Part shown: positions 3,301 through 38,400 of the stretch, one piece after another
How the letters are laid out: every line of letters starts with the position of its first letter
How positions within the stretch are numbered: the stretch's first letter is position 1
Source of the DNA: Argopecten irradians
Taxonomy: Eukaryota > Mollusca > Bivalvia > Pectinida > Pectinidae
Length of the DNA: 64,000 nucleotides
Reading direction: 5' to 3'
Assembly: GCF_041381155.1 (NCBI RefSeq)
Contig: NC_091142.1
Location: 28,533,963-28,597,962 of the forward strand
The notes under the pieces: generated by a model
What the model was told of the DNA's origin: nothing
Seen by the model: the letters and a program-made list of their open reading frames with translations, nothing else
Databases searched by the model: none
Position numbers and translations under genes: made by a program

Positions 3301-6300
3301 CTAATATGGAAAATCATAAATTCAATATTTAACTTGTTACTGTAGATAGCAAATATTTTCGTGAAAATGACTTCATAGTTTGGCCCTTTTATCTTGTCAT
3401 TCTACAGTGGTAAATAACCTATTAAACCATCTTAATTAAAAGTTACCTGTAACACATGCAGTTCAAAAGATGAATGTTTGGATCGGACAAATAGTAAGTC
3501 AGGACGACTGGACGGCGGGTCAGGGCCATCTAAACACTTAAAACAAAGGGACATGATCTTAATAAACTACTGTAATACAACAAAAGACTAAATTTTATTA
3601 TCCAAAATGTTTGCCAAATGAAAATCTTACAATGGTAGCATATCAGCTGTCATTACTATCCATTGTCCTCTATTTTTCTGTTTGCAGGCAGACATCTACA
3701 GTGTTGCAGCACAATAACGTAGTTTCTGCTATCGCAAGGAGACACAAAACAACCATACCACAGCAAAACAACAAAATAACCAATCTAGAACTCTGCAACT
3801 ATAGGTGAGACCATTGTACATTTTACGTTGAATTTACATTAACTTGTTTTTTTTAGACATTGAAGTTTGCATAGCTCTCTGTCTAAAGCGGTAATGGTTT
3901 CTGGGCAGCTATAAAAACCACCAGTATAAGCTGTTATGGTATAATCTACGCCCTCAATGGATGACATGTGATGGGGTCTTGCTTGGCATTTAAGAGGTAG
4001 CTATCAGTCACTTCAAGGGAAGCTCACCTAACCTAAATATGACACCACAAATAGAACCACAATGTCCAGAGAACCAAAATTGTATAACAAATATAAAATT
4101 CCATATATTGACAGTACCATATAAGGACAATACCATATAAGGACAATACCATATAAGGACACACCTACCAGGTGATTAAGGTGGCCTCGGATTATATTGA
4201 TCTTGTTTCTGTATGGCTTTAATTCCACCATGTATCGACTGAACGGACAAGGTCGTACTTCTGTAGACCTGTAACCAAAAACAAAAAGGAAACATTTGAG
4301 GCCCAAATACTTGTAAGATCAGATATTCTTACTATACCCCTTACGTAAGAGATGTAGGGTTGATATTTCCGAGACCAATCCCTTTAGTATTTTCTGAAAA
4401 AAAGTGGTAATAAACTTCATCTATCCAAATCCAACATGGCTGCCTATCAGCCATCTTGTTTTCTGATTGGTCCAAAAATACAATATAAGGGCTTTAAGGA
4501 AGACTATGAAATTTGATGCAGATCTCTTTAATAGAACCTTAGAAACTGGAGAAATAGTGGTAATAAACTTCAACTATCAAATTTTAAATTGGCTGCCTGT
4601 CTGCCATCTTGTTGTCTGATCAGTCATAAAATGCGATATGAAAGGTAACTTCAGTAGGTACTTACTTTACATTAAAGAAGGTCAGAATGTGAGACAATCT
4701 CAGGAACACTGAAAAGATAAATAAAAAATGTATGTATACCCCTGCAAGAAACTGTCTGAATATTACATGGCCTTCATATGATCTTATCTTCACCAATCGA
4801 CCAAAAAGATAAGTTAATCTCAGTTTTCTATTAATTGCATAAAACTGTATTTAGACGACAATAATGAACACAGTAACTCACGACAATAATGACCACAGTA
4901 ACTCACGACAATAATGACACAGTAACTCACGACAATAATGACACACTAACTCACGACAATAATGACAACAGTAACTCACGACAATAATGACCACAGTAAC
5001 TCACGACAATAATGATCACAGTAACTCACGACAATAATGACCACACAGTAACTCACGACAATAATGACCACAGTAACTCACGACAATAATGACCACAGTA
5101 ACTCACGACAATAATGACCACAGTAACCTCCACGACAATAATGATGATCACAGTAACTCACGACAATAATGACCACAGTAACTCACGACAATAATGACCA
5201 CAGTAACTCACGACAATAATGACCACAGTAACTCACGACAATAATGACCACAGTAACTCACGACAATAATGACCACAGTAACTCACGACAATAATGATCA
5301 CAGTAACTCACGACAATAATGATCACACTAACTCACGACAATAATGATCACAGTAACTCACGACAATAATGACCACAGTAACTCACGACAATAATGACCA
5401 CAGTAACTCACGACAATAATGACCACAGTAACTCACGACAATAATGACCACAGTAACTCACGACAATAATGACCACAGTAACTCACGACAATAATGATCA
5501 CAGTAACTCACGACAATAATGACCACAGTAACTCACGACAATAATGACCACAGTAACTCACGACAATAATGACCACAGTAACTCACGACAATAATGACCA
5601 CAGTAACTCACGACAATAATGACCACAGTAACTCACGACAATAATGACCACAGTAACTCACGACAATAATGACCACAGTAACTCACGACAATAATGACCA
5701 CAGTAACTCACGACAATAATGATCACAGTAACTCACGACAATAATGACCACAGTAACTCACGACAATAATGACCACAGTAACTCACGACAATAATGACCA
5801 CAGTAACTCACGACAATAATGACCACAGTAACTCACGACAATAATGACCACAGTAACTCACGACAATAATGATCACAGTAACTCACGACAATAATGACCA
5901 CAGTAACTCACGACAATAATGACCACAGTAACTCACGACAATAATGACCACAGTAACTCACGACAATAATGACCACAGTAACTCACGACAATAATGACCA
6001 CAGTCACTCACGACAATAATGACCACAGTAACTCACGACAATAATGACCACAGTAACTCACGACAATAATGACCACAGTAACTCACGACAATAATGACCA
6101 CAGTAACTCACGACAATAATGACCACAGTAACTCACGACAATAATGACCACAGTAACTCACGACAATAATGACCACAGTAACTCACGACAATAATGATCA
6201 CAGTAACTCACGACAATAATGACCACAGTAACTCACGACAATAATGACCACAGTAACTCACGACAATAATACCACGACATAATGCACAGTAACTCACGAC

Positions 6301-9300
6301 AATAATGACCACAGTAACTCACGACAATAATGACCACAGTAACTCACGACAATAATGACCACAGTAACTCACGACAATAATGACCACAGTAACTCACGAC
6401 AATAATGACCACAGTAACTCACGACAATAATGACCACAGTAACTCACGACAATAATGACCACAGTAATCACGACAATAATGACCACAGTAACTCACGACA
6501 ATAATGACCACAGTAAACTCACGACAATAATGACCACAGTAACTCACGACAATAATGACCACAGTAACTCACGACAATAATGACCACAGTAACTCACGAC
6601 AATAATGACCACAGTAACTCACGACAATAATGACCACAGTAACTCACGACAATAATGACCACAGTAACTCACGACAATAATGACCACAGTAACTCACGAC
6701 AATAATGACCACAGTAACTCACGACAATAATGACCACAGTAACTCACGACAATAATGATCACAGTAACTCACGACAATAATGACCACAGTAACTCACGAC
6801 AATAATGACCACAGTAACTCACGACAATAATGACCACAGTAACTCACGACAATAATGACCACAGTAACTCACGACAATAATGACCACAGTAACTCACGAC
6901 AATAATGACCACAGTAACTCACGACAATAATGACCACAGTAACTCACGACAATAATGACCACAGTAACTCACGACAATAATGACCACAGTAACTCACGAC
7001 AATAATGACCACAGTAACTCACGACAATAATGACCACAGTAACTCACGACAATAATGACCACAGTAACTCACGACAATAATGACCACACTCACGTGAGTA
7101 CTCACACAAAATGACCACAGTAACTCACGACAATAATGACCACAGTAACTCACGACAATAATGATCACAGTAACTCACGACAATAATGACCACAGTAACT
7201 CACGACAATAATGACCACAGTAACTCACGACAAGTACCACCAATAATGACCACAGTAACTCACGACAATAATGACCACAGTAACTCACGACAATAATGAC
7301 CACAGTAACTCACGACAATAATGACCACAGTAACTCACGACAATAATGACCACAGTAACTCACGACAATAATGACGTAACTCACGACAATAATGACCACA
7401 TACTCACGACAATAATGACCACAGTAACTCACGACAATAATGACCACAGTAACTCACGACAATAATGACCACAGTAACTCACGACAATAATGACCACAGT
7501 AACTCACGACAATAATGACCACAGTAACTCACGACAATAATGACCACAGTAACTCACGACAATAATGACCACAGTAACTCACGACAATAATGACCACAGT
7601 AACTCACGACAATAATGACCACAGTAACTCACGACAATAATGACCACAGTAACTCACGACAATAATGACCACGTAACTGACAATAATGACCCACTCACGA
7701 CAATAAACCACAGTAACTCAACAATAATGACACAGTAACTCACGACAATAATGATCACAGTAACTCACGACAATAATGACCACAGTAACTCACGACAATA
7801 ATGACCACAGTAACTCACGACAATAATGACCACAGTAACTCACGACAATAATGACCACAGTACTCACGACAATAATGACCACAGTAACTCACGACAATAA
7901 TGACCACAGTAACTCACGACAATAATGACCACAGTAACTCACGACAATAATGACCACAGTAACTCACGACAATAATGACCACAGTAACTCACGACAATAA
8001 TGACCACAGTAACTCACGACAATAATGACCACAGTAACTCACGACAATAATGACACAGTAATGACAATAATGACCACAGTAACTCACGACAATAACTACG
8101 ACAAAATGACCCACAGTAACTCACACAATAATGACCACAGTAACTCACGACAATAATGACCACAGTAAACTCACGACAATAATGATCACAGTAACTCACG
8201 ACAATAATGACCACAGTAAACTCACGACAATAATGACCACAGTAACTCACGACAATAATGACCACAGTAACTCACGACAATAATGACCACAGTAACTCAC
8301 GACAATAATGACCACAGTAACTCACGACAATAATGACAGTAACAAGACAATAATGACCACAGTAACTCACGACAATAATGACCACAGTAACTCACGACAA
8401 TAATGACCACAGTAACTCACGACATTAATGACCACAGTAACTCACGACAATAATGACCACAGTAACTCACGACAATAATGACCACAGTAAACTCACGACA
8501 ATAATGACCACAGTAACTCACGACAATAATGACCACAGTAACTCACGACAATAATGATCACAGTAACTCACGACAATAATGACCACAGTAACTCACGACA
8601 ATAATGACCACAGTAACTCACGACAATAATGACCACAGTAACTCACGACAATAATGACCACAGTAACTCACGACAATAATGACCACAGTAACTCACGGAC
8701 AATAATGACCACAGTAAGCTAACTCACGACAATAAATGACCACAGTAACTCACGACAATAATGACCACAGTAACTCACGACAATAATGACCACAGTAACT
8801 CACGACAATAATGACCACAGTAACTCACGACAATAATGACACACAGTAACTCACGACAATATTGACCAATGACCACAGTAACTCACGACAATAATGACCA
8901 CAGTAACTCACGACAATAATGACCACAGTAACTCACGACAATAATGACCACAGTCACTCACGACCACAGTAACTCACGACAATAATGACCACAGTAACTC
9001 ACGACAATAATGATCACAGTAACTCACGACAATAATGACCACAGTAACTCACGACAATAATGACCACAGTAACTCACGACAATAATGACCACAGTAACTC
9101 ACGACAATAATGACCACAGTAACTCACGACAATAATGACCACAGTAACTCACGACAATAATGACCACAGTAACTCACGACAATAATGACCACAGTAACTC
9201 ACGACAATAATGACCACAGTAACTCACGACAATAATGACCACAGTAACTCACGACAATAATTGACCACAGTAACTCACGACAATAATGACCACAGTAACT

Positions 9301-12300
9301 CACGACAATAATGACCACAGTAACTCACGACAATAATGACCACAGTAACTCACGACAATAATGACCACAGTAACTCACACGACAATAATGACCACAGTAA
9401 CTCACGACAATAATGACCACAGTAACTCACACAATAATGACCACAGTAACTCACGACAATAATGAGACCACAGTAACTCAGACAATAATGACCACAGTAA
9501 CTCACGACAATAATGACCACAGTAACTCACGACAATAATGACCACAGTAACTCACGACAATAATGACCACAGTAACTCACGACAATAATGACCACAGTAA
9601 CTCACGACAATAATGACCACAGTAACTCACGACAATAATGACCACAGTAACTCACGACAATAATGACCACAGTAACTCACGACAATAATGACCACAGTAA
9701 CTCACGACAATAATGACCACAGTAACTCACGACAATAATGACCACAGTAACTCACGACAATAATGACCACAGTAACTCACGACAATAATGACCACAGTAA
9801 CTCACGACAATAATGACCACAGTAACTCACGACTATAATGACCACAGTAACTCACCAAATCCTGACATGTACGCATCATATCCAGCTTCATGAGGCCGAC
9901 TGTTGTCCTCTAAATAGAAACAGAACTTTACTGTTACAACATTATTCAATGCTTGAGCTGTCATCGTTACAAACGATATCGATGTATTGACATTTCTCAT
10001 CTTCCAATACGATATCAATTCCTGTTTTCTGAAATTGATACAATGACCGAAATTGTACTTGATGACCTACCTATGACCTAGTAACATTTGAATTTCAAAT
10101 GCCAACGAATTATGTATTATTTCTTACAGTATACCAATAATATATGTATTTTGTAAGGATCCTGATCATGTTAACTGTAAAAAATTTTCACAAAAATTAT
10201 ACATGAAATACACAGAGTTCCCGAGTGACATACATTGTTTTCATTCTTAAACCGATTATGTAATACACAAAACGACCGTTCCAAATTTCATCCTTTTCTC
10301 AACATATTATATATCAGTACAATACTTAAAATTTTTAGATCAATGACAGCTCTTTTCACTGCTATAAAAGAAACAAGAAGTAGGGATGATGACATTTATC
10401 AAAACAGTATCTCATACTCTCACTGTATGACAAACTCTGCTAGAGATCATACCAAGGACCCCCGAGTAACAAGATACATTACCCCCCTGGTACTTACTGT
10501 AACTTTCGCTGGCATGTACAACTGATGGTGCATCAATGACAAACTGTTGACCGGCAGGGCTGAAGAGAGAGAGTAACAATACAGAATAACAGCACATGAC
10601 TTGTATAAATATATTTATAAACTTCATTTTCTCAATTCATTGGGTTGGGGTTCTATTAAATGGAGACCAGAAATACTGTATAGTTAGTTATTTTCGCAGT
10701 TTTATGGGCTATGGCCTTGTTTGGAAAATTTTGATATTCAGAAACAATTGAATTATATAAACACTAAAGCCAAATCACTAGAATTTAATTTTCTAGATTT
10801 AGTTACAAATTGCAAAAAATTTGGCCTGCGAATATAACCAGCAATATATCTCTGTATGACTTCTGATGGGGCCAAGTGGCTATGAATCCTAATGATATGC
10901 TTTCTAGATAGAGCATATACATATATGAGAGGAAGATCGGAGGGAGGAGGGGGAGAGGGGGATGCAGTGAATTTCTGGGGTACTTATAGTTACCTTGATA
11001 GAGCCTGGTACAGCATCCCTAGTGAGGAATTTTCTAGCAAGCCTGATTCTCTGAAAAGCTAAAAAAGAAGATGTTTATTGCAATATGGTAGATATAGACC
11101 ACAAGTCCTTAACCTAAAGGTTGTGATAGAGAACTGCGACCTAGGAGGAGATAATCTCAGTTATGCAAGTCAAAAATATGATGCTAATGGTTTGAAATTC
11201 TCTAGGAGGGGGAGGGGGGGTGTGATATGTGTGTTGGTGGTGAGGATGGAGGGAGAGGGGACTATTTCCTCTTTTGTAAAAAACTTGTTTAAATTTTACT
11301 GTCGAAACAGCCTAACCATTGACAGTGACAGTGACGTACTCACCAGCAAATGCGCAGTACCTATTGCTTTCTGGGTTACAATATAATGCTAGACACAAGT
11401 TGATTGGTTGGTGGGCATGGTTTATATATCGTGAGATAAGTGTGATCAACGTGTGATAGATCCATCCTGAACTCATCGGGTATTACTGTATTCATAGAAC
11501 TGCATGGTGTGTCCATACTTTTTATTACCTGCAGTTTTTACAACAGACGCTTCTTCAAAGAAGTGCAATTGTTGTGGAATCAAGTCCATAGCTCTAGCAA
11601 TAAATGCGGTCACACAGTTTTTCATGCTGTCTGTTTAATTTCAGCCGTGATAGACTGGAAAACTTTTCAGTCATTGCTAATTTATGTGTCTCTTCTGGCC
11701 GATTGAACCATTTGCGCCACATGAACATTTCTCTCCAATAAACGGGTCATTATTTTATAACTGTTAATTGAAGGTTGCTCAACCTTCTCACTATTCTATA
11801 AACTGTAAGATTTCGTTGGTAATTTTTCTTGGGTTCCGATGAACAGGTGACGGGGTCACATGTCCCCCATGCAGTCACATTCTTTATAATCTTGTGACAA
11901 CCTCCTCTTGGCACACCAGTTTTTTTTTTACTAATCAAGAAAAGATCATCCTTTATAATACAGATCAAGTATTTCACGACGAAGTTTACCATCCGTCAGT
12001 ACCCCGTTAGCATAAGATCTTCCACACCCGTTTTTCTTATCGGGCGCAGCCATATTGCCTATCAAACTCTACAACATCGTCAGATAAACTCCGCCCACTT
12101 GTTCTATCGCCTGACGTCGGGTAGGCTATGTAAACTCCGCCCTCCAGACGATTGACAGAACCACTCGACCAGTTGATAATATCTGTCCCACAACATACCG
12201 AGGTATTGCATCATTTATTTTGTCAACGGTTGTATACTTGTAATCATCTTGGTAAAATGATGCAAGAAATGAAAGAGGCTTACATATAAAATATATATTT

Positions 12301-15300
12301 TTCAACTTGAAGGTGATGTACTAAACCCATCATAGCCTTGCTGAAAGGGGCAGAACACTAGTTTGGCTCCAGCTGCATTTGTGAAATGATAAGAATTGTC
12401 TCTGTTACACAATTGAAATGATTGCAATGGTGCCATCATGTGTCCTTAATAATCTGCCATTGAAAGACATATCACCTTTTTAAACTTGGGCAGAAAATTT
12501 CAGAAAATTAAAATCTAGGATGGGGTAGAAAATAAAATTGTCTTACAGTTTATAGAAAATTTTAAAAAATTAAAATCTATTAGCGATGGAATAGCTGTGA
12601 ATACTATGTCTTCAATCTGAGCTAAAAGAGGAAATTTATAATGGTTTATCAATGGTTTACTTACTTGTCGTGTTGTGTTACAAATGTGTTTGGTATCAAA
12701 AACACACGGGAAAATCTTATTGATGTTTTTCTTGAATTCTTCACAGGTCTCTGAAAAGATTAACAACTGTAATATTGTAAAAGGAGCGGGTTGGGATGGC
12801 TTGTACAAATGTATACCTATCATTCACTATCCTGGTAAGAAGCTCCATGATTTTCTTACTACAACAGATCGATTCTGTATAGTATTTGTAAATTCAACAT
12901 AAAACATGATTACTTTGTTTAATACTATGAGATTGTGTAAACCAACTTATTTTTCAAATTTTTCTGCCTAATAACATTGATTTAATTTCATGATTTAGAT
13001 TGAAATGGTTCTTCCTTACATGTACTCATAACAATTTCACGGTTAGTAATTTTCCTGAATTCTAACTGCCCACAAAATACACGAACTTTAATCGCACATG
13101 AAAATTTGTACGTGTTATACACGAATGTTCATGAATAAACTCATCTTCGGATAGAAGATGCTACCATGCAGTTTTCCACAAAATATTGCTTAAAAATTTG
13201 TGTAATCATAAAAATAGACGTTTCTCATGCGATGGCAAAAATGGGTACTTGGCCAGAATTGTTCGCTGACCAATAGCTGCTATGAGAAGAAGATAAAACC
13301 TCAACTTTTTTTTGTTCTGTTGGGTAAATCTTCTCTTATGAAGTTTGGCTTTATTAATGGTTTGTTTGATGATAATTTGATAAGTACAGTTCCCTTAATT
13401 ATTTGTATAATACTAAAAAACTCATAAATACCTGGTAATGGTTTATAAAACTTGTCATGTATCAGTAACAGGTCCAGCAGCATGTTATGTCCAATGATAG
13501 GCTGTAAAAGGAGAATATAATAAGATAATTAGTAATAATAGTCGAAAGTAAAACAATATCAAGAATTTCTCAGAATCCGTAACAATGTATGCTAGTCACA
13601 AGTAATACTTCATGTATAAAGTAAAAACTTTTTTAAATTGACTGCAAAGCAAGTCATACAAATCTCTTTTGAAGGCCTGGATGTAAGTGCATGAAAGGTC
13701 TTAGAATGGGAGAAACCAGAATGCCACTTTTCTTGTCTGTGCCAGGAATCAAAATCCAGCCAGCTACATGACCAGGCTTTACCACTACAACACACAACTA
13801 CCAAGTGACAATTTTAAAGTTCTATCAATTAAGCTCAGGAAAGTATTTACAAAATCTATTAGGATGGATACTACTAAATGTAATCATATTATGGATTTAT
13901 CACAGAATGAAATGTAAATTATAATATGAATTATTATCATTATAAAAAGATACATACAACACCTCCTTTTAAAAGAGTAAACACTCTTGTAAATCCTTTC
14001 AAATTTTCCAGTAATCTGAAAAAACAGTATCACAAGAATAAAGGTAAAGAATTGTCTGAGAATTTTTAATAGCTCTGAAACAGTAATTTGAAATTGTACC
14101 CAAGTCATTAAGAATACTGGAAACTAAGTGAAGTTTGTGTGTACTTGAATTTGTTACATTTTGGGGGTAATCAAAATTAGAAATTTTAAACAAGAGCTGT
14201 TTGAGAACAGCAAAGCTCACCTCTGGACTTACACCAAAATCTTAACCTGGATTATTTCGGCTCACTTGGGCCTATTTAAATTCCTAAATTCCAGTATTTT
14301 CTTCCTTTAAATGATTGTCCATACCCATCATAACAATTAAAACCAAAATTATTGTAGAAATCAATGCAAAGTATTGAAAGATTCTTTCAACACAATACAT
14401 ACACAGGCAATATTTCTTCACGTGTGTGGGGGCCGCAGTGGCCGAGTTATGAAGATGTCTCGACATATTACCACAAGCCCTCCACCTCTGGGTCACGAGT
14501 TCAAATTCCACGTGGGGCAGTTGCCAGGTACTGACCGATGGTCAGTGGTTTTTCTCTTGGTACTTCGATTTTCCTCCACCAACAAACCTGGCTCGTCCTT
14601 AAATGACCCTGGCTGTTAATAGGATGTTAAACTAATAAAACCCCTCTTCAAGTGAAGAAATATTGCCTGTGTATCAACTATGAATTCCTTAAAAAAAAAA
14701 AAACATGATAGAGTGACTTTAGCATTCTGTTTGTTCCCAATGAATTTTTCATTAGGTATATAATTAGGCTAGTACTAAACTTAAAACTTGAATAACTTTT
14801 TTATTATGGCTGGAAAGTATGTGTAGAGAGAAGTGCAGTATGTAGATAATGTATATCAGTTACCTTTCCCTATCTTCTTCAGTGTCTATAGCAAGGCTGT
14901 CACCTTTATCATTTTCCTCGGCAAACCTAGAGATCTGTAACGTCTAGAAAACACAAAAATGTTGAGCCAATGGTAAACAACTTTTTCCCCTCAAAATTAA
15001 TGATTTTAATTAAAATGTAGTTTGTTTTAACATCATTTTAATGATTTCTCCTATTCCTGGATAAAATTTAGCAACCACAACACAATAAAGTCCTGTAAAT
15101 ATGCAAAATTATAATGATCTCCAAATTGTTCAGTTAGATAATGGTGTGTGTCTCCTCATCTAATTATATATCACATGTACTACATCTTACCCTTTGTTCA
15201 TTATCCAATATATTGATCCTTAAGTTCTTAAATCTGTGTCTCAGCTCTGACCGCAGTATAAAGGATTTCATATGGCAAAGCTCTATTAAAACAAAAAGTG

Positions 15301-18300
15301 GAATCATACATATGAAAGACAAACCAATAGACAATAAGATTTAAGTACTAGCTACCACAGTATAAAAAGTCTTTTTTTTTATCTATTTTAAATTCGTTCC
15401 ATAAGTAGCTTCGCATCTTCTGTCCAATTTTTAAGAAAATTAGTATAATTATGCAAATACACAAGCATTTAAAGAATTGCTAACTAGTTGTGAGCAAGAA
15501 TAGAGGGGTTTTAAGATCCCAAAAGGACGTGGGTTAAGTACAATTTACCACCGATTAGTCCCACCATCCGGTGATTATGACGTCATCATTTGACATGAGT
15601 TTTGTGATGTCATAATCACCGGAAGGTGAGACTAATTGATGATAAATTGTACTTTACCCACGTTTTGTTGGGGTCACGAAACCCCTGTGTTGATTAATAT
15701 CTAGATGAACCTAAACTTATCCATTTATCGATTCAAAATTATTATAATAGATTAATTGTGTGACCATCTTCACCGATTATGATAAGTCATCCTTTTCCAA
15801 TTTAACGGATGGTCATTTGTAGTTTTTAGCTTATTATACAATACTACAAGCTAGTAAAGTTAGCGATGACAAAATGACTCCATGTGTATTACCAGGGATT
15901 TCCTCATCAGCCACCTCCAACATCGCACTTGGGTCGCCTTCTGATTTTACCAGCCATTCAGCTACCCTTGAGCACAATGCTTGGAGCACTTCTTCATCTA
16001 CATCATTGGACCTGAAATAATATCAACTGATGACATCACTTGTTTTACTTACACCTGAAGCACAAATACTGATGACATCATGGTTTTATGGTTTTACAGA
16101 ACACCTTGAGCACAAACACTGCTGACATCATTTGTTTTACTCGGTACTGTACTCCTGGAGCACAAACACCGATGACATCACTGGTTTTACGGTTGTTGTG
16201 GTAATGATGTTATAAATGAAAACACATAAAATAAAATATTTTATTTGGCCTTACCTTTCCTTAACTTTAAACATGGTCTTGGAGAGAAGATATTTCTCCA
16301 CTGCCTTTGTTTACAGTTGGTTGAGATGATGTTACTGGAAACACTGATGACATCACTGGTTTTACGGTCGTTGAGGTAATGATGTTATAAATGAAAACAT
16401 ATAAAATAAAATATTTTATTTGGCCTTACCTTTCCTTCCCTTTAAACATGGCCTTGGAGTGAAGATATTTTTCAACTGCTTTTGTCTGTGGTTGGTTGAG
16501 GTATGGGATCCCATCATATACAAACTGTAGAAATAAAACTGTATACTTTAGTGTATGCCTATTCTGAGGAACTCAAACTCCAACTTAAATCAAAGTACTG
16601 GCAGGTCTATGCAGCCAATTTAGTGTAACTTGTCTACATCACATGTCACTAGCATCAAACTATTTGGTCAGTATAGACAGGTTCCGGATTATACAGGTTT
16701 TAATTACTGCTGCCCCACTACTATATATAGTACAATGTAGTATATCTATATACCATAAAATATGTTTGGATCTATTAAATACTTTACTGTTATATATATC
16801 AAATATATAAACTACATGTTATTTTTAAAGAAATTTGAATCATATCTGTGTTGTTTTGAATTAATATCTACCATAGTAAACAACAATACAAACCTTATTG
16901 AAGTCAAAATCATACTTGCAGAGGAATTGAAAACTGGAGGCCTAAAAATAAGGTACCATTATATATAAATACCTGTATAACCTCTCTGTCTAGTTGAGTA
17001 GGTATATATTTAGACTAAAGAAAGGAGAAAAAAGTAAACTTATGTCTAGATTCCCAAATTATTCAACAGAAATTTGTTTTTCTAAAGATGATCTAACATG
17101 AATGCCAATTTCTTATAAATTCATGTCAGAATGGAAGAACAAATATATTATTTCCATTGATTACTTTCAAAATATATACAAACTTTTAAAATTTTATATA
17201 GATAATCTAACATGAATGCCAATTTCTTATAAATTCATGTCAGGATGGAAGAACAAATATATTATTTCCATTGATTACTTTAAAATATATAAAAACTTTT
17301 AAAATTGTCTAAATGTTAAGTATTTGCATAAAATACATTTTAGAATCTGTGCTCATTTCATACAAATTTTTATCTTTTTTTTATTTTTACACTCATTCCA
17401 AATCACATTTGCTTTGTTTAATAATTGGTTAAATTTATATTACAATTTCAGAGCTGATAATCTCATTTTCTTTTCTTTAATTAAAACATTTACCTGAACC
17501 AGAAATCTAGCATCAACAGGCCCAAAGGTAGGTGGGTAGAGGTAAAAATTAAAGGTTGTGGCGATGTAACTGTCAGAATAGAAAAATAGTAAAATTTCTA
17601 ACAGCAGCAGTTTTCATATTAACATTACAATTAAGATTGTATTAAGATATCTTGCTTGTTTTCAAAGTGCAAGTTAATCAAAAAGCAAATACAAAGTTTT
17701 ATTGAGATCTTTAATTGTCTCACAAAGAGAATAATTATTGTCATTTAATCATTAAGACAAAATCATACATGTTTAGAGGAACTAGAACATTACTTTATCT
17801 AATTATTTGAAGGGTTTCAACATTATGACATGTCTGACCAATATTTACCTATTCTTGTCTCTCCTTTTGTATGCAGATAACCCTGAACACAACAAACAAA
17901 TAAATCAAGTAATAAACAGTTTGTCAAAAGCATTTTTATAATACATATACGAAATGTAGAAATCATTCTACGGTACACATAGTAAACTAGTAACATGTAG
18001 AAACAGGACTTAATGAAATCTAAGAAAAGGTTTTTATTTCAATAATACAAATAAAATTGTGTCAGACACAGAAATATATGAGGTACATGCAGTGTACATC
18101 TTATATTTATTACATCAAACTATTTTGGTTTTGAAATTGTTTTACAAGGTATTTTGATTGTCAACATGTACATGTAGCTGTAAATAAAATAGACTTTACA
18201 ATATGAAGTGTTTGTACATAAAAGTGTTTGTACACAAACCTATTTGTGTTATTGTGAACTCAGACATGGAACTCTTCAGTTTTTGGTATCTGTCCTCTGT

Positions 18301-20129
18301 TGTATCAAACAGGCTGCGAACAGAGATCAATAAACATTCTTTGTTTTTGATAAATTGCATTATAATAATGCATTTAGGTGAAACATGATTAGTTTGGTGA
18401 ACTTAGTAATTATGAAAAATAAAATTCACAAAATGTTTTCCAAACACAAGTGGTTTGGATGGTGAATTTGGCAGAGAGTGACATAACCATTCAGAGACAA
18501 AATGGAGACATTGCAGGTATCAGTTTCTATTTATATAATTACCGATACCACACAGATAATTGGTATGCAGTAATATATCTATTTATTCAGCTCTATAACT
18601 TTTCACTCAAATATGGCTTACCTTGTTCTTTCCTTTGGACCCCTTTCCAGTCCAGTGAACTCTGTATCAATTGCTGACAAAGGAAACATATAGAATCAAT
18701 ATCCTCATCTCAACCAGACACTTTTTCATGTTTTTAATGCTATATCATTGCGGATACAGTAGTTTTTACCTTTGCTGCACAATATAAAAGAGGAGGAGGG
18801 AAAATAATAATGTTTCTTAGAAAAATTAGCAGTACATGTAATGTCATTGACTCATGTATGCTAATATGATTATTTTCTATAATATATTTTAGTCAGAATT
18901 TCAAATACTGTACCTTTGAATACATTACAAGAACACTTACTACAAATTAATGAAAAACCATAGGAGCTTGATGTTCTGTCAATAATATGTAGCATAAATA
19001 GTGTTCTTATATAGTATATAGGGATTTTTTTTTACATCTATTTATGCTATATAATATGAATTTAAGGCAAAGCCTCAGAAGAGCGCAGCTACATGTAAAC
19101 GATTATAACATCATAACTTTACATTGTCTTTAATTTTCTACGAGATTAACAATAAAATATTTCACTGACATGCACATAATATCGATAGGTAGAAATAATT
19201 CAAAATAATCCAAATGGAATAGTTCAATATACTTCAATAGTTTTTATCAGATGCAGAGAAAACTTGGCAACATGCCATGCTATAAAAATATGCGCGAATC
19301 TGTAATGTGCCGTCATCTTTGGCGTCAGGTTTTGTGACGTCACTGCTGACGGTGCCGTGCGCTTGAGAACATACATAGTGTATATTGGACCTGAATATTT
19401 CTTGCGTTGTTCTTGTATATATGTAAATTAAAACTACTTACAGTGATTTTAAAGCGTATACTGATAACACATTTAGTCTAGTACAGAAATTTCAAATCTC
19501 GTCGTGTTGATATCGAGAATTAAAACATGGCTGCCTACATGGAGGCGCGAGACTTTTCCCGCGGGACACAATTTCAAAGTCCAAGGGGTACTGGAATGTA
19601 TTGGAATCTATATGTTCACACACATGTTATGGTTAGTAGAGCTTCGCTCTACGCGGCCTTCGGCCGCGCAGAGAGCTGCGCTCTTATTATTGACAAAACG
19701 TCAAGCTCCTGTGGAATAACATTGATTATGTATCAAGAATATGTTTCACAATATTGATTATATACAGTGTGTTTCATTCCTTGGAAATTGTTTGTTATAC
19801 CTATGGTAATAATATGTACATGACAAATTAAATTTGTTGAGAAAAATGTTTATATTCTCGGTTCATAGTTTGGTGTAACAGTTTATTAATCAGATATTTA
19901 ATCACGTTCTTTTTTCCTTATATATGCATATACATTTTACAAGCACAGTATTTCATCATGCTCTACAAATTCAATTAATTTAATTAAAAAAAAAACAACT
20001 TTTGTTTGGTAAGATTAAAATATTGCATAAATGCTTAATCGGACGCTTACCAACAAAATCAGCATGTTTTATGCTGCGTTCGATAAGTGGAAAATAATCT
20101 TCAAATGTTGTTTTCAAAACTTCCACCAT
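367..20129 (-). CDS. PNLDC1: PNLDC1-like piRNA 3'-end trimmer (PARN-family DEDD exonuclease)
   Basis: PNLDC1 (Trimmer) is a 3'-5' RNA exonuclease that shortens pre-piRNAs on the mitochondrial surface. I assembled 22 exons, 541 codons, all junctions in phase: 20129-20051, 18673-18622, 18313-18240, 17882-17849, 17569-17494, 17014-16973, 16524-16430, 16011-15893, 15282-15191, 14943-14864, 14015-13958, 13501-13432, 12750-12665, 11058-10994, 10559-10498, 9909-9856, 4708-4666, 4268-4169, 3536-3447, 2293-2205, 1067-969, 433-367. Catalytic residues are visible: D29 and E31 (AIDTEFTG), D277 (GHNMLLD), H368 and D373 (HEAGYDAY). Residues about 521-536 are hydrophobic and followed by SRKKN, a tail-anchor pattern. 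That anchor and the WRHS block before it favour PNLDC1 over PARN. Human PNLDC1 is close in length (about 530). Exons 9 and 10 match the family least, and exon 11 uses a GTATGT donor. The gene is divergent from TCTN2. Confidence 0.93.
2674..3246. mobile_element. TTAA-flanked MITE (piggyBac-type target)
   Basis: The ends are inverted copies of AGGGACAATTCAGT (2674-2687) and ACTGAATTGTCCCT (3233-3246), each bordered by TTAA (2670-2673 and 3247-3250). A TTAA target duplication is typical of the piggyBac superfamily. The 573-bp interior has no transposase, so the element is non-autonomous. It lies in PNLDC1 intron 19. Confidence 0.7.
4104..4164. repeat. short tandem repeat, about 17 bp x 3
   Basis: The unit ACCATATAAGGACAAT repeats three times just downstream of PNLDC1 exon 18, within intron 18. 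It leaves the exon-18 donor (CTG|GTAGGT at 4169/4168) intact. Confidence 0.8.
4855..9855 (-). repeat. giant 25-bp minisatellite seeded at a splice donor
   Basis: About 200 head-to-tail copies of a 25-bp unit fill roughly 97% of PNLDC1 intron 16. Read on the gene strand, each unit starts GTGAGTTACTGTGGTCATT, and the first unit begins at intron base +1, directly after exon 16 (TTTG|GTGAGT). Every unit therefore carries a consensus-like 5' splice site. Most copies are identical. A recurring C/T variant (GACCAC versus GATCAC on the plus strand) and a few rearranged units near 6266-6296, 7080-7110, 7660-7740 and 8050-8120 break the pattern; some may be sequencing or assembly errors. Without the array the intron would be about 150 bp. 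Confidence 0.97.
10900..11260. other. G-rich purine tracts in PNLDC1 introns
   Basis: GA-rich stretches at about 10930-10965 and 11200-11260 flank PNLDC1 exon 14 (11058-10994). They are low-complexity sequence with no coding support on either strand apart from that exon. Confidence 0.5.
11740..12053 (-). pseudogene. broken paired-domain (HTH) gene, probably transposon-derived
   Basis: An ATG at 12053 opens a reading frame with GRSYANGVLTDGKLRREILD, resembling the start of a paired-type DNA-binding domain, then stops. Similarity resumes in a second frame (TGVPRGGCHKIIKNV, the recognition-helix region, then CSSEPKK) and in a third (KITNEILQFIE). The chain is therefore broken by at least two frameshifts and several stops. 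Short paired-domain genes of this style accompany Tc1/mariner-like elements and are common in molluscs (recalled knowledge). It sits in PNLDC1 intron 13 on the same strand. A GC-richer stretch at 12060-12180 may be its old promoter. I did not attempt to restore it. Confidence 0.6.
14427..14640 (+). mobile_element. tRNA-headed SINE in PNLDC1 intron 10
   Basis: The head holds pol III box-like motifs: an A-box-like GTGGCCGAGTTATGAAG near 14438 and a B-box-like GGTCACGAGTTCAAATTCC near 14491. The tail (CTGTTAATAGGATGTTAAAC) matches other SINE tails in this window at about 44380 (inverted) and 46930. It does not fold as a functional tRNA. It is flanked by a 22-bp inverted repeat rather than an obvious direct target duplication. 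Confidence 0.7.
15507..15686. mobile_element. palindromic MITE, copy 1
   Basis: Nearly self-complementary arms run from GGGGTTTTAAGATCCCAAAA inward through AAGTACAATTTACCA and mirror back through AAATTGTACTTTACCCACG to CGAAACCCC. The centre contains GATTATGACGTCATC. A second copy lies at 49588-49763. It is non-coding and lies in PNLDC1 intron 8. Confidence 0.7.
16040..16200. repeat. degenerate ~60-bp tandem repeat
   Basis: Three to four copies of a unit containing GAGCACAAACACTGATGACA and TGGTTTTAC lie in PNLDC1 intron 7. The motif recurs at 16338-16368, where it joins the duplicated exon-7 segment. Confidence 0.65.
16256..16330 (-). pseudogene. duplicated, broken copy of PNLDC1 exon 7
   Basis: A segment of about 172 bp covering the 3' part of exon 7 and its downstream intron is tandemly duplicated (about 16169-16330 and 16340-16510). 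The extra copy keeps the splice donor (GGAAAG|GTAAGG) but lacks the acceptor and first exon codons, and has an in-frame TAA where the real exon reads CAACCACAG. It looks like a non-functional exon relic. Confidence 0.75.
17087..17310. repeat. 116-bp tandem duplication in PNLDC1 intron 5
   Basis: Two nearly identical copies begin with GATCTAACATGAATGCCAAT or GATAATCTAACATGAATGCC and end with AAAACTTTTAAAATT. They differ at only a few bases, so the duplication is recent. No coding potential is seen. Confidence 0.85.
19527..19757 (+). other. 76-codon ORF with a triple-hairpin core, unrecognised
   Basis: A plus-strand ORF (MAAYMEARDFSRGTQ start) lies in PNLDC1 intron 1, upstream of TCTN2. I recognise no domain. 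Within it, 19638-19684 holds three hairpins in a row: AGAGCTTCGCTCT, GCGGCCTTCGGCCGC (a C-UUCG-G tetraloop if transcribed) and AGAGCTGCGCTCT. The ORF may be chance reading through a palindromic element. Confidence 0.25.
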
Positions 20130-29400: not shown

Positions 29401-32400
29401 GTCAATGTTTCTATTGTGACGTCACGATAACGTAGGGTTTCCGTGCCATTCTCTGATTTTTTTTCATCATGGAATGAAAAAAATGAATAGGCCAATCAGA
29501 AAGCCAGAAACAAAGAGAAAATTAATTATAACACCTTGTTCAAGTTAAATCTACTGTAAATGACAATTTGTATCCTAAACTTCATCTTAGTCAAGCCCAA
29601 CATAATACTTCAAATTAAATGAGGTCTTTAAGTTATACTATTTTGAGACAACAAGGTTCAACTGTGTCTAATAAGAAGAAATTTAGCACTGCTGAAGATT
29701 TTATGTATCTGTATATTATTTCCACAGGGTCCTAACTTGGTGAATGTGACACGGCGTAGTGGTGTGACGGTCCCTGTCACAGAGTATGTGGTCGTGACCT
29801 GCTGCTCTACCAGTGGCCTTGACCTTACTCCTGATGCTGTGTTAGTGGAGGTCAACCTCACACCCAATGTCACACTTGACTGGAGCAAAGCAACTGGTAA
29901 GTAGGTCAACCTAACACGCTCAATGGAGCAAAGCAGCTGGCAATAGGTTATCGTCGATCTCATGCCCAACACTAGACCCAATTAGAGTGAGGGCAACTTG
30001 CAAGTAAAGCTAAATGAATGTCTTTGTTTTTGGTGTTTCATTTTTCATAATTTTAAAAAACTTTTGTCTCATGGTCCCAAATAGTTCCAAAAGTCTCATT
30101 CATGATTTATGGTTGATAATGTTAATTTTAAGCAATGAAAAAAATACTCAAACACTCTCATATCATACAACAGAATGTACACTGTATATACAAAGTGTGA
30201 ATTTAACATTGTGTTTCAGCTAAAGCAGCTGTTAATGATGAGAGGAAGTACCAGAATCCGGCCTACGTAGACGTGGCTCCGTGTCCTTGTGACCTGACCT
30301 TCTATGTCTGTGACATCAACTGTTGTTGTGATACGGTGAGGTTCATTGTGTGATCAGCTGTCTATCACCATTAACTGTAAATCTGAAAAGTCCATTACCG
30401 TATTCAACCCAATAAGCACCTAGGGCATTAAAAAAAAATTAAAAAAAAATGAAAGGTGCTTAATAAGACAAAATTATTGCAAACCTGTACAGTTTTGGTC
30501 TTTATTTATGACCGGGCAATTGAAATTGAGAGGGGGAGCTTCTAGGGACATGGGTGTTTATTGAGTGGAATACGGTATGTTGAGTTGTAAGATTATGGAG
30601 CCATTATATGTAGTAACTTTCTACCAACTTATTTTTACAGCATCTAAGCTTTATTGTTAGGTCACCTGAGACGAAGTCTCAAGTGACCTATTCTAATCGC
30701 CTTTTGTCCGTCGTCGTCCGTCGTCCGTCGTGCGTCGTCCGTCGTGCGTCGTGCGTCGTATGTCCGTAAACAATTTACATTTTCGACTTCTTCTCCAAAA
30801 CTGCTGAAGCAATTTCAATGAAATTTTGCACAAACCTTCTAAGGCATAAGGCCAATCAAAATTGTGAATTATATGGTCCCCACCCCCCAGGGGGCTGTGG
30901 GAGGGGCCAAAAGGGGTAAAATTGAGTAAAATTTCAAAAATCTTCTTCTCTACTCACAGATGTGGTAGAATCAAATACTCTTCATAGATAGAAAGGTCTT
31001 AAGGTCCTTTACAAAAATTGTGAATTATATGACCCTGGGGTCTCTAGTTTCCCCCTGGGGAGGGGGTTAAGTTTACTATATTTTATATTGAGAAAACTCT
31101 TTTTTGCGCATTATTTGGTCATTTGTAATAGGAAATGAGTCAAATGTTGTCAGAATTATCAGTATGAGATGGCCATTTAATCCTATTAACAAATTTTCTA
31201 TGACTGACCCCCAGGGGCCTTAGGGGCGGGGTCAAAAGGGGTCAAATAGGCTAAAACTTCAAAAATCTTCTTCTGAAATTCTGGAAATGGTAGAATCAAA
31301 TACTTTTCATAAATAGAAAGGTCTTAAGGTCCTTTACAAAAATTGTGAATTATATGACCCTGGGGTCTCACGTTTCCCCCTGGGGAGGGGGTCAAGTTTA
31401 CTATAGTTTATATAGGGAAAACACATTTATGAGCATTTTTTGCTCAATTTTCATTGGAAACGAGTCAAACTTGGTTAGAATTATTAGCCTGAGATAGCAT
31501 TTTAATATCATATCCACATTGGTTCTGGCCGACCCCCTGGGGGCAGAGGGGCGGGGCTAAAAAAGGGTCAAATAGGCTAAAACTTCAAAAATCTTCTTCT
31601 GAAATTCTGGAAATGGTAGAAACAAATACTTTTCATAAATAGAAAGGTCTTAAGGTCCTTTACAAAAATTGTGAATTATATGACCCTGGGGTCTCACATT
31701 TCCCCCTGGGGAGGGGGTCAAGTTTACTATAGTTTATATAGGGAAAACACATTTATGAGCATTTTTTGCTCAATTTTCATTTGAAACGAGTCAAACTTGG
31801 TTAGAATTATTAGGCTGAGATAGCATTTTAATATCATATCCATATTGGTCCTGGCCGACCCCCTGGGGGCAGAGGGGCGGGGCCAAAAAAGGTCAAATAG
31901 GCTAAAACTTCAAAAATATTCTTTTTAAATTCTGGAAATGGTATAATCAAATACACTTTATAGATAAAAAGGTCTTAAAGTTTGTTTATAAAAATTGTAA
32001 ATTATATGACCCTGGGATCTCCTGTTTCCCCTTGGGGAGGGGGTCAAGTTTACTATAGTTTATATAGGAAAAACACATTAATGAGCATTTTTTGCTGAAT
32101 TTTCATAGGAAATGAGTCAAACTTGGTTAGAATTATTAGCCTGAGATAGCATTTTAATATCATATCCACATTGGTCCTGGCCGACCCCCTGGGGGTAGAG
32201 GGGCGGGGCAAAAAAGGGTCAAATAGGCTAAAACTTCAAAAATCTTCTAAAATTCTGGATATACAGTGGAACTTCCCAAAACCAAACCTTCTCAAAACCG
32301 ATCACCTCTAGAAACCGAACATGGATGTCATGTACGGAATTAATTCTTCTTTATTAATGGTATATAAAACTTCCCAAAACCGATCCCTCCCAATTCCGAA

Positions 32401-35400: not shown

Positions 35401-38400
35401 CATAAGTCAGGATGATTACCTGAACCAGGGAACCAGCTTTGAAAGATCCGGTTGGCCAGGTAAGAATCCAACATTGTATGCACATTCATTGATAAGGACA
35501 TCAGGAAATGGTTGGAATGATTGGTAGATGAATATTAGAAAGTTGAATACACGTGGACGTGGATGTGGCGCAGTGGTAGAAGGCGCATGTATGTTTGGCT
35601 AGGCGATAGGGTGCTGTAGATCGGAAGTTCAATGCCCGGATAGAGCACGAGTCAATAAATTGTCATGCTTTGTTAAATTGTGTTTCTTTGATATTTAAAG
35701 TTGAATACACGATAGAGTTATATATCTCGCATTCCCTAGACTCTAGCCGCTGAACAAGAGTTTGGTCTGGTTCATATTTCAGTTTTGTGATTTCAAATGG
35801 AGGCTTATCAAAAATTCAGTGAAGCTTTTCAAGCTGATAGAAACACACCCTTAAATATGTTTGATATATAAACTTTTGAAAAGCAATGACAACCACACTT
35901 GAACAATGGAAAGATAGACTTTCAGTTAAAGAAATTACAAATCACTATTCATCCTCTCTGACTGATTATCTTATTGGATATACACGTAAATACATTTAAA
36001 AAATTTCATTTGACGTTTTTGTTTATATTTACATCAGGTTATAACAAAGGGAGACCACTTCTGACAGGATCGGAGATGACCTTACCTGGCGGGGCATTCT
36101 ATGTTAATCGGAACACAAGCAGACAACATGCTCTGTGGGGTACTGGTTAGTAATACATAGTTACTATATATATAATGTGAACATATTACTTCAAATAGTG
36201 ATATTGCACATGCATGCAATATGATGTTTTATCAGCATTTGATTTAAAACTGAGAAATTAATAAAGAGTTTCCAATTGCGTAAATGGAATGTAAATTTGA
36301 GACAATTGTTGCTTCAGACGTTAATGGACTGTGTACCAATGCTGGAAGAAGACCGATCCTGTTTGGAGAGAACTCCTTCACCAGTTGTGATATATACCTC
36401 ACTGCTAATGACCTACTGGGTGATTGTGAAGATTTGAGGTAAAATGTTATCTAGAGTTAGCGACACATTTCAGTGGTTAAGGTGTTCCACTATCCTTCCA
36501 TCTCTGAAACGCAAGTTTGAAACTCACATGGGGTAGCTAATTGCAAGGTTTTTATCCCACCATTATCAGATGGTGGGTTATTCAAATCCCCTTTCGTCTG
36601 TGGTCCGTCCGTCCTCTTGTCCGTCCTTCCGTCGATGAACAAGATGGCCGCCAAGCTGCCATCTTGGATTTTGACATTTGAAGTTTGTTACCGCTATATC
36701 TCAGAAAGTCCTGAAGGAATCTGTCTCAAATTTCATTGAGCTTACCCTAGGGTTTAGTTGTGCGTATTGCAATTTTGGACCAATCTGTGAACAAGATGGC
36801 CGCCAGGCTGCCTTCTTCGATTTTGATAGATAAGTTTGTTACCGCTTTTACTCAGAAGGTAATAAAGGGATTTGTCTCAAATTTCATCTGAATGTTCCTC
36901 CAGGGGTTTTGTTGTGCATATTGCATTTTCAGACCAATCAGTGAACAAGATGGCCGCCAGGCTGCCATCTTGGATTTTGAAAATTGAAGCTTTTACCGCC
37001 ATTGCTCAGAAAGTACTGAAGAGATATGTCTCAAATGTCATGTGCAGGTTCCCCTAGGGGTCTAGTTGGGCATAATGCATTTTTGGACCGATCAATGAAA
37101 AAGACGGCTGTCATACCACCATCTTTGATTTTGATAGTTGAAGTTTGTTACCGCTATTTCTCAGAAAATACTGAAGGGATCTGTCGCAAATTTCATGTGC
37201 TGGTTCCCCTAGGGGTCTCGTTGTGCATATTGCATTTTTGGACCCATCAGTGAACAAGATAGCGGCTTGGATTTTGATAATTGAAGTTTATTACTGCTAT
37301 ACATAGATCTCAGAAAGTAGTGAAAGGATCTTTCGTATATAGTATGAAGTTGAGGTTTAAAAAGCAGAGAAAAGATCCCTCTTTCTGTTGTCAGACATAG
37401 ATCATTCTTTGGTGGGCGCCAAGATCCCTCTGGGATCTCTTGTTTTTTTCTCTGGGTACTCCCACTTTCCTTCATCTCCTAAACCTGGCATATCTTAAAA
37501 TATTTATATTTTCACTGCAATGCCACTATGTAACCTTACCAAAAACAGTTGGCGTTCACCAATGCATTAATTGCCATCTACTTATTTTGACATCATTATC
37601 ATTGTCACATCACAATTCTCATGCCAGTGATCACAGAAATGGCCGTTGAAATGGCTACTCCATCCTTGATTTCAAAATTGAAAAGTTGTTTTTGTTTTTG
37701 CCAGAAAACTGTTAATCAATCGCCTGAATAACCTGATGGCTGCTGATAAGATTGGAAGATACGGTAACAATAACCCGTACGATAGTAGCCATTGGATCAC
37801 TGTATTAAGGTAAGGACATGGGAACAATTTCAACACATTACTTTAAATACTTATCATGTTATAAATATTGATTAGAACATCTTAGTCTGTGACTCTTTTC
37901 CGGTGTCTCCTCAGTATAAACATTCTGAAATAAGAAATCTTATTAAAAAGTACATTGTCAGATTTTGGTTTTCATCCACGGATAAGTGGCACTGGTATAT
38001 AGGTTATCCCGATGTTCAGGGGAAAAAAGTTGCAACTTTTACTCCAGAAAATTCCGTAAATGGAGTACATCGTGTATTTAACTTTGAGATGTACAAATTA
38101 TTTATCAATGAAACCTTGTGCATCCATTTGTTGTTATGTTGTCAATTAAATAGTTTTATATTGGAATTGAGGCCATGTGAATTATTATATATAGATATAT
38201 ACCAATAATATCCTCTAACCAATTTCGTTTATGTTTCAAGGACAGTACCAGTAAATTGTTTCACATTGGTCATCTTTTTATCATATTTATAGAGTAACTT
38301 GTAAAAGTGTGTAAGCATCAAAAAAAGTTCTGTCTTATGTATCATTTTAGTGGTACGGGGTGATTTTCAAAAAGTGTGTTAGAACTGATTTCTTTATATT

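What the first reader, a model, noticed from the sequence alone, without database searches (positions are those of the whole stretch)
4709..9856. A ~200-copy minisatellite grown from the splice donor of PNLDC1 intron 16
On the gene strand the 25-bp unit begins exactly at intron base +1 (GTGAGTTACTGTGGTC...), so amplification has filled the intron with about 200 near-perfect 5' splice-site decoys differing from the real one mainly at base -1 (G in the exon, C in the repeats). The intron would be about 150 bp otherwise. This could titrate U1 snRNP, slow or alter splicing, or tune expression by repeat number in a gene needed for piRNA maturation. The unit start at +1 is seen directly; any effect is inference.
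Basis: partly seen in the sequence, partly recalled or inferred. Interest (0 to 1): 0.8.

Follow-up and report, generated by a model that had tools for sequence, protein, structure and literature searches.

The report
Splice-donor-anchored minisatellite in PNLDC1 intron 16
The first 25 bases of one intron of a small-RNA-trimming gene, including the splice start signal, stand about 200 times in a row; the same kind of repeat is already known in the human gene ABCA7, where longer arrays alter splicing.

Summary
On the minus strand lies a PARN/PNLDC1-type ribonuclease gene (18 exons modelled). Exon 16 ends at 9856, exon 17 starts at 4708, and 5,001 of the 5,147 intron bases are a 25-bp minisatellite of 202 units (146 perfect; 192 begin GTGAGT). 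Periodicity switches on exactly at intron base +1.

It is not a new kind of thing. The human ABCA7 intron-18 VNTR (PMC5954066) also has a 25-bp unit whose first bases are the exon's donor, about 12 to 427 copies, low-level retention of one unit, and length-dependent skipping of the next exon. In this same genome an ABCB1-like gene, and probably one more gene, carry arrays copied across a true donor.

The repeats are weaker U1 partners than the true donor (-5.8 against -9.2 kcal/mol). Either error would truncate PNLDC1 here (stop at codon 389 or 398). Most likely this is a young, largely passive minisatellite, spliced from the exon-edge donor with at most a small, length-dependent leak. No effect on splicing was tested. 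One result speaks against growth in place: a related 22-bp array on C2/C7 shares a 13-mer that spans the unit junction.

The parts
4855..9855 (-). 25-bp minisatellite array, 202 units, gene-strand unit GTGAGTTACTGTGGTCATTATTGTC
9831..9855 (-). first unit = true 5' splice site and first 25 bases of intron 16; carries a variant (base 22 T to A) that gives an in-frame TAG if retained
9856..9909 (-). exon 16 (DNSRPHEAGYDAYMSGF), ends ...TTG before the donor
4709..4854 (-). non-repeat remainder of intron 16 (146 bp) with acceptor TTATCTTTTCAG
4666..4708 (-). exon 17 (FLRLSHILTFFNV), 43 nt; skipping it shifts the frame
4169..20129 (-). PARN/PNLDC1-type CAF1-family ribonuclease gene, exons 1-18 modelled (3' end not modelled)

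Best explanation
It is an intronic minisatellite anchored on a 5' splice site. A tandem duplication of the first 25 bases of PNLDC1 intron 16, starting at +1, was followed by slippage or unequal exchange to about 200 units; the exon side could not follow because it is coding. Splicing normally uses the exon-edge donor: unlike the consensus repeat it has G at -1, it pairs better with U1, and it adjoins the exon. The copies are weaker, mostly silent donors. The array is chiefly a passenger. By analogy with ABCA7 it probably leaks at a low level in two ways, retention of one unit (in-frame TAG in that unit) and skipping of exon 17 (frameshift), the second rising with array length, so that copy number may slightly lower full-length PNLDC1. 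Shown: the anatomy, the relative U1 pairing, the frame consequences, and an array over a true donor in at least one other gene of this genome. Inferred: origin in place, donor choice, any leak, any effect on dose.
For: Periodicity begins at +1, and exon tail and unit are unrelated, 4 of 25. 202 units with few substitutions. Lowest-energy duplexes with the 11-nt U1 5' end (recalled sequence): true donor -9.2, repeat donor -5.8; 2 of the 18 modelled donors of this gene are weaker than the repeat donor. Retention of one unit stops at codon 389 and exon 17 skipping at codon 398. The human ABCA7 intron-18 VNTR has the same layout with measured unit retention and length-dependent exon skipping. Another array over a true donor in this genome: an ABCB1-like gene; a further probable one in a perlecan-like exon.
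Against: A 22-bp array on C2 and C7 aligns to the 25-mer with score 64 (500 shuffles: maximum 43; 12 of 13,830,356 random units reach 64), and the shared ATTATTGTCGTGA spans the unit junction, which in-place duplication should have created anew. In the ABCB1-like gene 23 of the 27 GTAAGTAC sites seen (true one included) have the true donor's TCG before them, so weaker copies are not a general condition for such arrays to persist. No related species, cDNA or RNA-seq was available.
Confidence: 0.68

Rival explanations
1. The array did not start from the donor: a pre-existing minisatellite (relative of the 22-bp C2/C7 array) reached intron 16, and one of its GTGAGT-bearing units came to serve as the donor after the original start of the intron was lost.
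For: Related 22-bp unit on C2 and C7, same sense orientation in an intron, sharing the junction-spanning 13-mer. About 9e-7 of random units are as similar, so perhaps 0.02-0.2 expected if the genome holds 20,000-200,000 arrays (my assumption). Two other array units used as controls found only their own locus. Among 276 pairs of 24 units in hand this pair scored 64 and the next 29, but the C2 unit had been picked by a search for similarity.
Against: The 22-bp consensus has no GTGAGT (its GTGATA site pairs with U1 at only -1.8); chance is not excluded; it needs an extra loss of the original donor at exactly the exon edge.
Confidence: 0.17
2. The repeats are a selected U1 platform: many donor-like sites just inside the intron recruit U1 and strengthen definition of the 54-nt exon 16, tuning PNLDC1 by copy number.
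For: U1 binding downstream of a natural donor enhances exon definition in PAH exon 11 (PMC5933811, abstract); repeat sites pair better than 2 of 18 natural donors here.
Against: No conservation data; the true donor is already the fourth strongest of 18 in the gene; tandem arrays with and without donor-like hexamers are common in this genome, so no special cause is needed.
Confidence: 0.08
3. The copy number, or part of the array, is an assembly artefact.
For: 126 inserted or deleted positions against 24 substitutions, clumped in some units between perfect ones, looks like long-read consensus error (inference).
Against: Both array ends run into unique flanking sequence, 146 perfect units are present, and the first unit carries its own variant.
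Confidence: 0.05

Closest known systems
Human ABCA7 intron 18 VNTR (PMC5954066; passages and section 21 seen)
   Same: 25-bp unit; the first GT of the array is the exon's splice donor; immediately flanks the exon; about 12-427 copies; a copied donor can retain one unit, out of frame
   Different: Other gene and organism, unit in a C-rich region and of other sequence; there length polymorphism and exon 19 skipping were measured, here nothing is measured; skipping is in frame there (44 aa) and out of frame here
Human IFI6 (6-16/G1P3) minisatellite with multiple splice donors (Turri 1995, not read; described in a passage of PMC4526556)
   Same: Tandem repeat units used as splice donor sites
   Different: Units there are used in alternative mRNAs; much shorter array (recalled)
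Array over a true donor in an ABCB1-like gene of the same genome (C1, about 2762375 to 2765530; L073, L082; the middle part was not fetched)
   Same: Tandem array over a true splice donor inside one intron; 27 GTAAGTAC sites in the fetched parts
   Different: Unit of about 37 bp carries 19 exonic bases as well, so most copied donors seen equal the true one from -3 to +8

Membership tests
Donor-anchored intronic VNTR (ABCA7 type) | Array immediately flanks an exon and its first unit contains the natural splice donor | tested here: met
Donor-anchored intronic VNTR (ABCA7 type) | Unit begins with the donor GT, so exon sequence is not copied | tested here: met
   edge offset 0; exon tail 4 of 25 identical to unit
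Donor-anchored intronic VNTR (ABCA7 type) | Copy number varies between individuals | not testable with these tools
   one assembly only
Donor-anchored intronic VNTR (ABCA7 type) | Length-dependent mis-splicing | not testable with these tools
   no RNA data; frame consequences computed
PNLDC1 (piRNA 3'-end trimmer) | CAF1/PARN-type nuclease domain | tested here: met
   PF04857 E 7.2e-85; PARN structures 3d45 and 2a1r E 2.9e-48 and 5.9e-48
PNLDC1 (piRNA 3'-end trimmer) | Distinct from PARN | tested here: inconclusive
   a second locus on C5 has a PARN-like exon fragment, 54% over 24 aa to this protein; 3' end not modelled, no tree built
IFI6-type minisatellite providing alternative donors | Repeat donors are joined to the next exon in mature mRNA | not testable with these tools
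   no transcripts available

The most novel reading that the evidence does not exclude
This genome carries a whole class of minisatellites anchored on or spanning true splice donors (PNLDC1, an ABCB1-like gene, probably a perlecan-like gene and more), fast-changing in length, which act as evolvable dials on the splicing of many genes; in PNLDC1 the dial would set piRNA trimming and so transposon control.
Probability: 0.12. Interest if true: 0.72.

Novelty: new member of a known kind. Interest (0 to 1): 0.42.

Why it matters
It shows that the ABCA7-type layout, known as a human disease VNTR, also exists in another genome and another gene, and that arrays over true donors occur more than once within that genome. 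That makes a comparative test possible: does array length at a donor predict skipping of the next exon across unrelated genes? For PNLDC1 both error modes would truncate the protein, so the locus would be a clean natural reporter of the effect.

Tried and rejected
Genome-wide enrichment of donor-like arrays: GTRAGT three times at array spacing gave 57,370 matches against 32,896 for the reversed pattern, but counted by array in the first 5.5 Mb of C1 there are 11 against 15 (my count from the listed rows, which stop near 5.5 Mb in both), so no enrichment by locus is claimed. The stricter AGGTRAGTAT gave 1,014 matches against 191; the listed rows come from only a few long arrays. A rule that such arrays start at +1 was rejected: of 10 C1 arrays tested (of 11; a5 was dropped because the piece I looked at lay inside the array) only a11 gave offset 0, and there repeats continue to the left. 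How many of the 10 lie over true donors stays open: a8 does (ABCB1-like); a mechanical test (open frame plus pyrimidine-rich AG upstream) leaves a3, a4 and a9 undecided, finds no such acceptor for a1, a2, a6, a7, a11, and none for a10 either, which I had first taken for a probable donor. The idea that arrays persist only if copied donors are weaker was rejected by the ABCB1-like array. A GTMGTRAGTAG array pattern was a dead end: 69 matches against 325 for its reversed control. The exact 25-mer has no match in viral contigs or genome contigs, which hold viral and bacterial or archaeal sequence. In one search all 96 forward matches but only 4 of the 164 reverse ones were listed, so further relatives of the unit may exist. 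An extra exon at 17014-16973 was tried and dropped in favour of an acceptor at 16941 giving ASSFQFL. Paper searches (listings only) showed nothing on a mollusc PNLDC1 or on such an array in a bivalve. The first paper search did not surface ABCA7; one search did.

Full report
What is there. The window lies in an 845.8-Mb genome of unnamed species at C9:28533963-28597962; I take it for a bivalve mollusc from recall only, untested. On the minus strand I modelled 18 exons from 20129 to 4169 with GT-AG introns and one open frame of 429 codons. The product matches Pfam CAF1 (E 7.2e-85) and PARN structures 3d45 and 2a1r (E 2.9e-48 and 5.9e-48). A separate PARN-like exon fragment on C5 makes PNLDC1 the likelier name for this gene, but I built no tree and did not model the 3' end. 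The alignment to PARN runs unbroken across the exon 16-17 junction, so the exon 16 donor at 9855/9856 is well supported without cDNA.

The array. TRF gives a 25-bp array from 4855 to 9855; 146 exact copies are on the minus strand, 0 expected. My wraparound alignment finds 202 units, 146 perfect, 192 starting GTGAGT. The array begins exactly at +1: identity with the base 25 positions on holds at +1 to +8 and fails in 11 of the last 12 exon bases. The first unit has a private variant at base 22. Substitutions are few (24 in 5,001 bases, 15 of them one recurrent variant), while 126 positions are inserted or deleted, clumped in some units, so part of these are probably consensus errors and the copy number is approximate. 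Without the array the intron would be 146 bp; the other 16 modelled introns are 247-1,606 bp.

Are the copies plausible donors? Using the 11-nt U1 5' end (recalled), the true donor scores -9.2 kcal/mol and the repeat donor -5.8; the 18 modelled donors range from -3.5 to -10.7, the true donor is fourth strongest, and 2 of 18 are weaker than the repeat donor. So the copies are weaker than the real site but within the range of sites this gene uses. The consensus unit's only AG lies inside GTGAGT, and intron 16 has no AATAAA or ATTAAA on the gene strand. If a repeat donor is used, the added sequence starts with the first unit, which reads into TAG at codon 389 (1 to 7 added units computed); if exon 17 is skipped, a stop follows at codon 398.

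Precedent. The human ABCA7 intron-18 VNTR has a 25-bp unit whose first two bases are the exon 18 donor, immediately flanks the exon, and ranges from about 12 to about 427 copies (PMC5954066, passages). In that gene, use of a donor one unit on retains 25 bp; I read the level as about 2%, and it was not affected by VNTR size, whereas skipping of the downstream exon rises strongly with length, 4.1-fold for a 9,711-bp allele over an 837-bp allele in one person (section 21). IFI6 uses repeat units as alternative donors (passage of PMC4526556 citing Turri 1995; the 1995 paper itself not read). U1 bound downstream of a natural donor can promote exon definition (PMC5933811, abstract). The layout here is therefore a new member of a known kind, with the ABCA7 behaviour as the best guide to what it does.

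Not alone in this genome. A pattern of three donor-like hexamers at array spacing listed 11 arrays in the first 5.5 Mb of C1. I examined the 5' edge of 10 of them. One (a8, C1:2762945) lies over the true donor of an ABCB1-like gene: the exons on either side, joined, match ABCB1 at E 3.8e-33. Its unit carries 19 exonic bases, and 23 of the 27 GTAAGTAC sites seen in the fetched parts have the true donor's TCG before them. Of the other nine, a mechanical test for an open frame with a pyrimidine-rich acceptor leaves a3, a4 and a9 undecided and finds none for a1, a2, a6, a7, a10 and a11; a10 ends an open stretch after a pyrimidine-poor AG and its peptide had no Pfam match. From a stricter pattern I looked at four stretches on C1. 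One (C1:10612571) starts inside an open exon with a good acceptor; its peptide's best structural match is perlecan, weakly (E 0.22), and its only Pfam match is a sub-threshold one to another family (CILP_8th, E 0.077), so the gene name is a guess. Two lie in a related repeat cluster without a visible exon, and in the fourth the array fills the fetched piece, so its edge was not seen. The same PNLDC1 gene also has a 175-bp duplication of the end of exon 7 with its donor (149 of 175 identical). Counts by locus show no excess of donor-like over reversed-hexamer arrays (11 against 15), so I claim recurrence, not enrichment. None of the others shows the clean +1 start of PNLDC1; a11 gave offset 0 but repeats continue upstream of it.

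Result against in-place origin. A 75-base query of the unit found one other place, on C2. That is a 22-bp array of about 202 copies ending about 20 bases before the acceptor of a long open exon; nearly the same exon and array recur on C7, so it is probably a gene pair (the C2 protein had no Pfam match). Its unit aligns to the 25-mer with score 64; 500 shuffles reached at most 43, and 12 of 13,830,356 random units reached 64. Two control units found only their own loci. With tens to hundreds of thousands of arrays in the genome (assumed), chance is unlikely but not excluded. The shared 13-mer spans the join between units, which a fresh duplication of the donor region should have made for the first time in PNLDC1. 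Either the C2/C7 array descends from the PNLDC1 one, or both from an older repeat, or it is chance. A search with the 22-bp unit did not complete. I leave this open and give the foreign-origin reading 0.17.

Verdict. The simplest reading is a young minisatellite anchored on a donor, largely passive, with a possible small length-dependent loss of full-length PNLDC1.

Noticed in passing
window 16164-16500 (minus-strand intron 7): 175-bp duplication (1.9 units, 149 of 175 identical) of the 3' part of exon 7 with its donor, followed by a 50-bp repeat of about three units: a second duplicated donor in the same gene.
   Followed up: partly
L009 2289-6736 (C2:50235288-50239735) and L077 1-1303 (C7, from 15510900): 22-bp minisatellite before nearly the same long open exon on two chromosomes; unit resembles the PNLDC1 25-mer; on C2 it ends about 20 bases before the acceptor.
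   Followed up: partly
L073 and L082 (C1, about 2762375 to 2765530): ABCB1-like gene with an array of about 37-bp units spanning exon end, donor and intron start; 23 of 27 GTAAGTAC sites seen carry the true donor's TCG.
   Followed up: yes
L086 (C1:10612500-10613900, minus strand): Array spanning the end of an open exon with a good acceptor and its donor (CACAG|GTAAGTAA repeated); perhaps perlecan-like, weak evidence.
   Followed up: partly
L075 (C1:3591500-3593100, minus strand): Array after an open stretch ending TTTACCT|GTAAGTATAGG; a pyrimidine-poor AG precedes it, so a true donor is possible but unsupported.
   Followed up: partly
window 17078-17285: 94-nt direct duplication, 95% identical, in intron 5 of the same gene.
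   Followed up: no
window 30884-32248 and 36636-37260: Satellite-like arrays of 326 bp (4.2 copies) and 154/309 bp.
   Followed up: no
window 55204-55521 and 63551-63844: Two similar clusters of 8/16/24-bp repeats built on TGTCGACT/CGACAAGA, on both strands; perhaps parts of one dispersed element.
   Followed up: no
L080 (C5, around 5783109-5783195): PARN-like exon fragment with a long tandem repeat beside it, seen in the translations.
   Followed up: no
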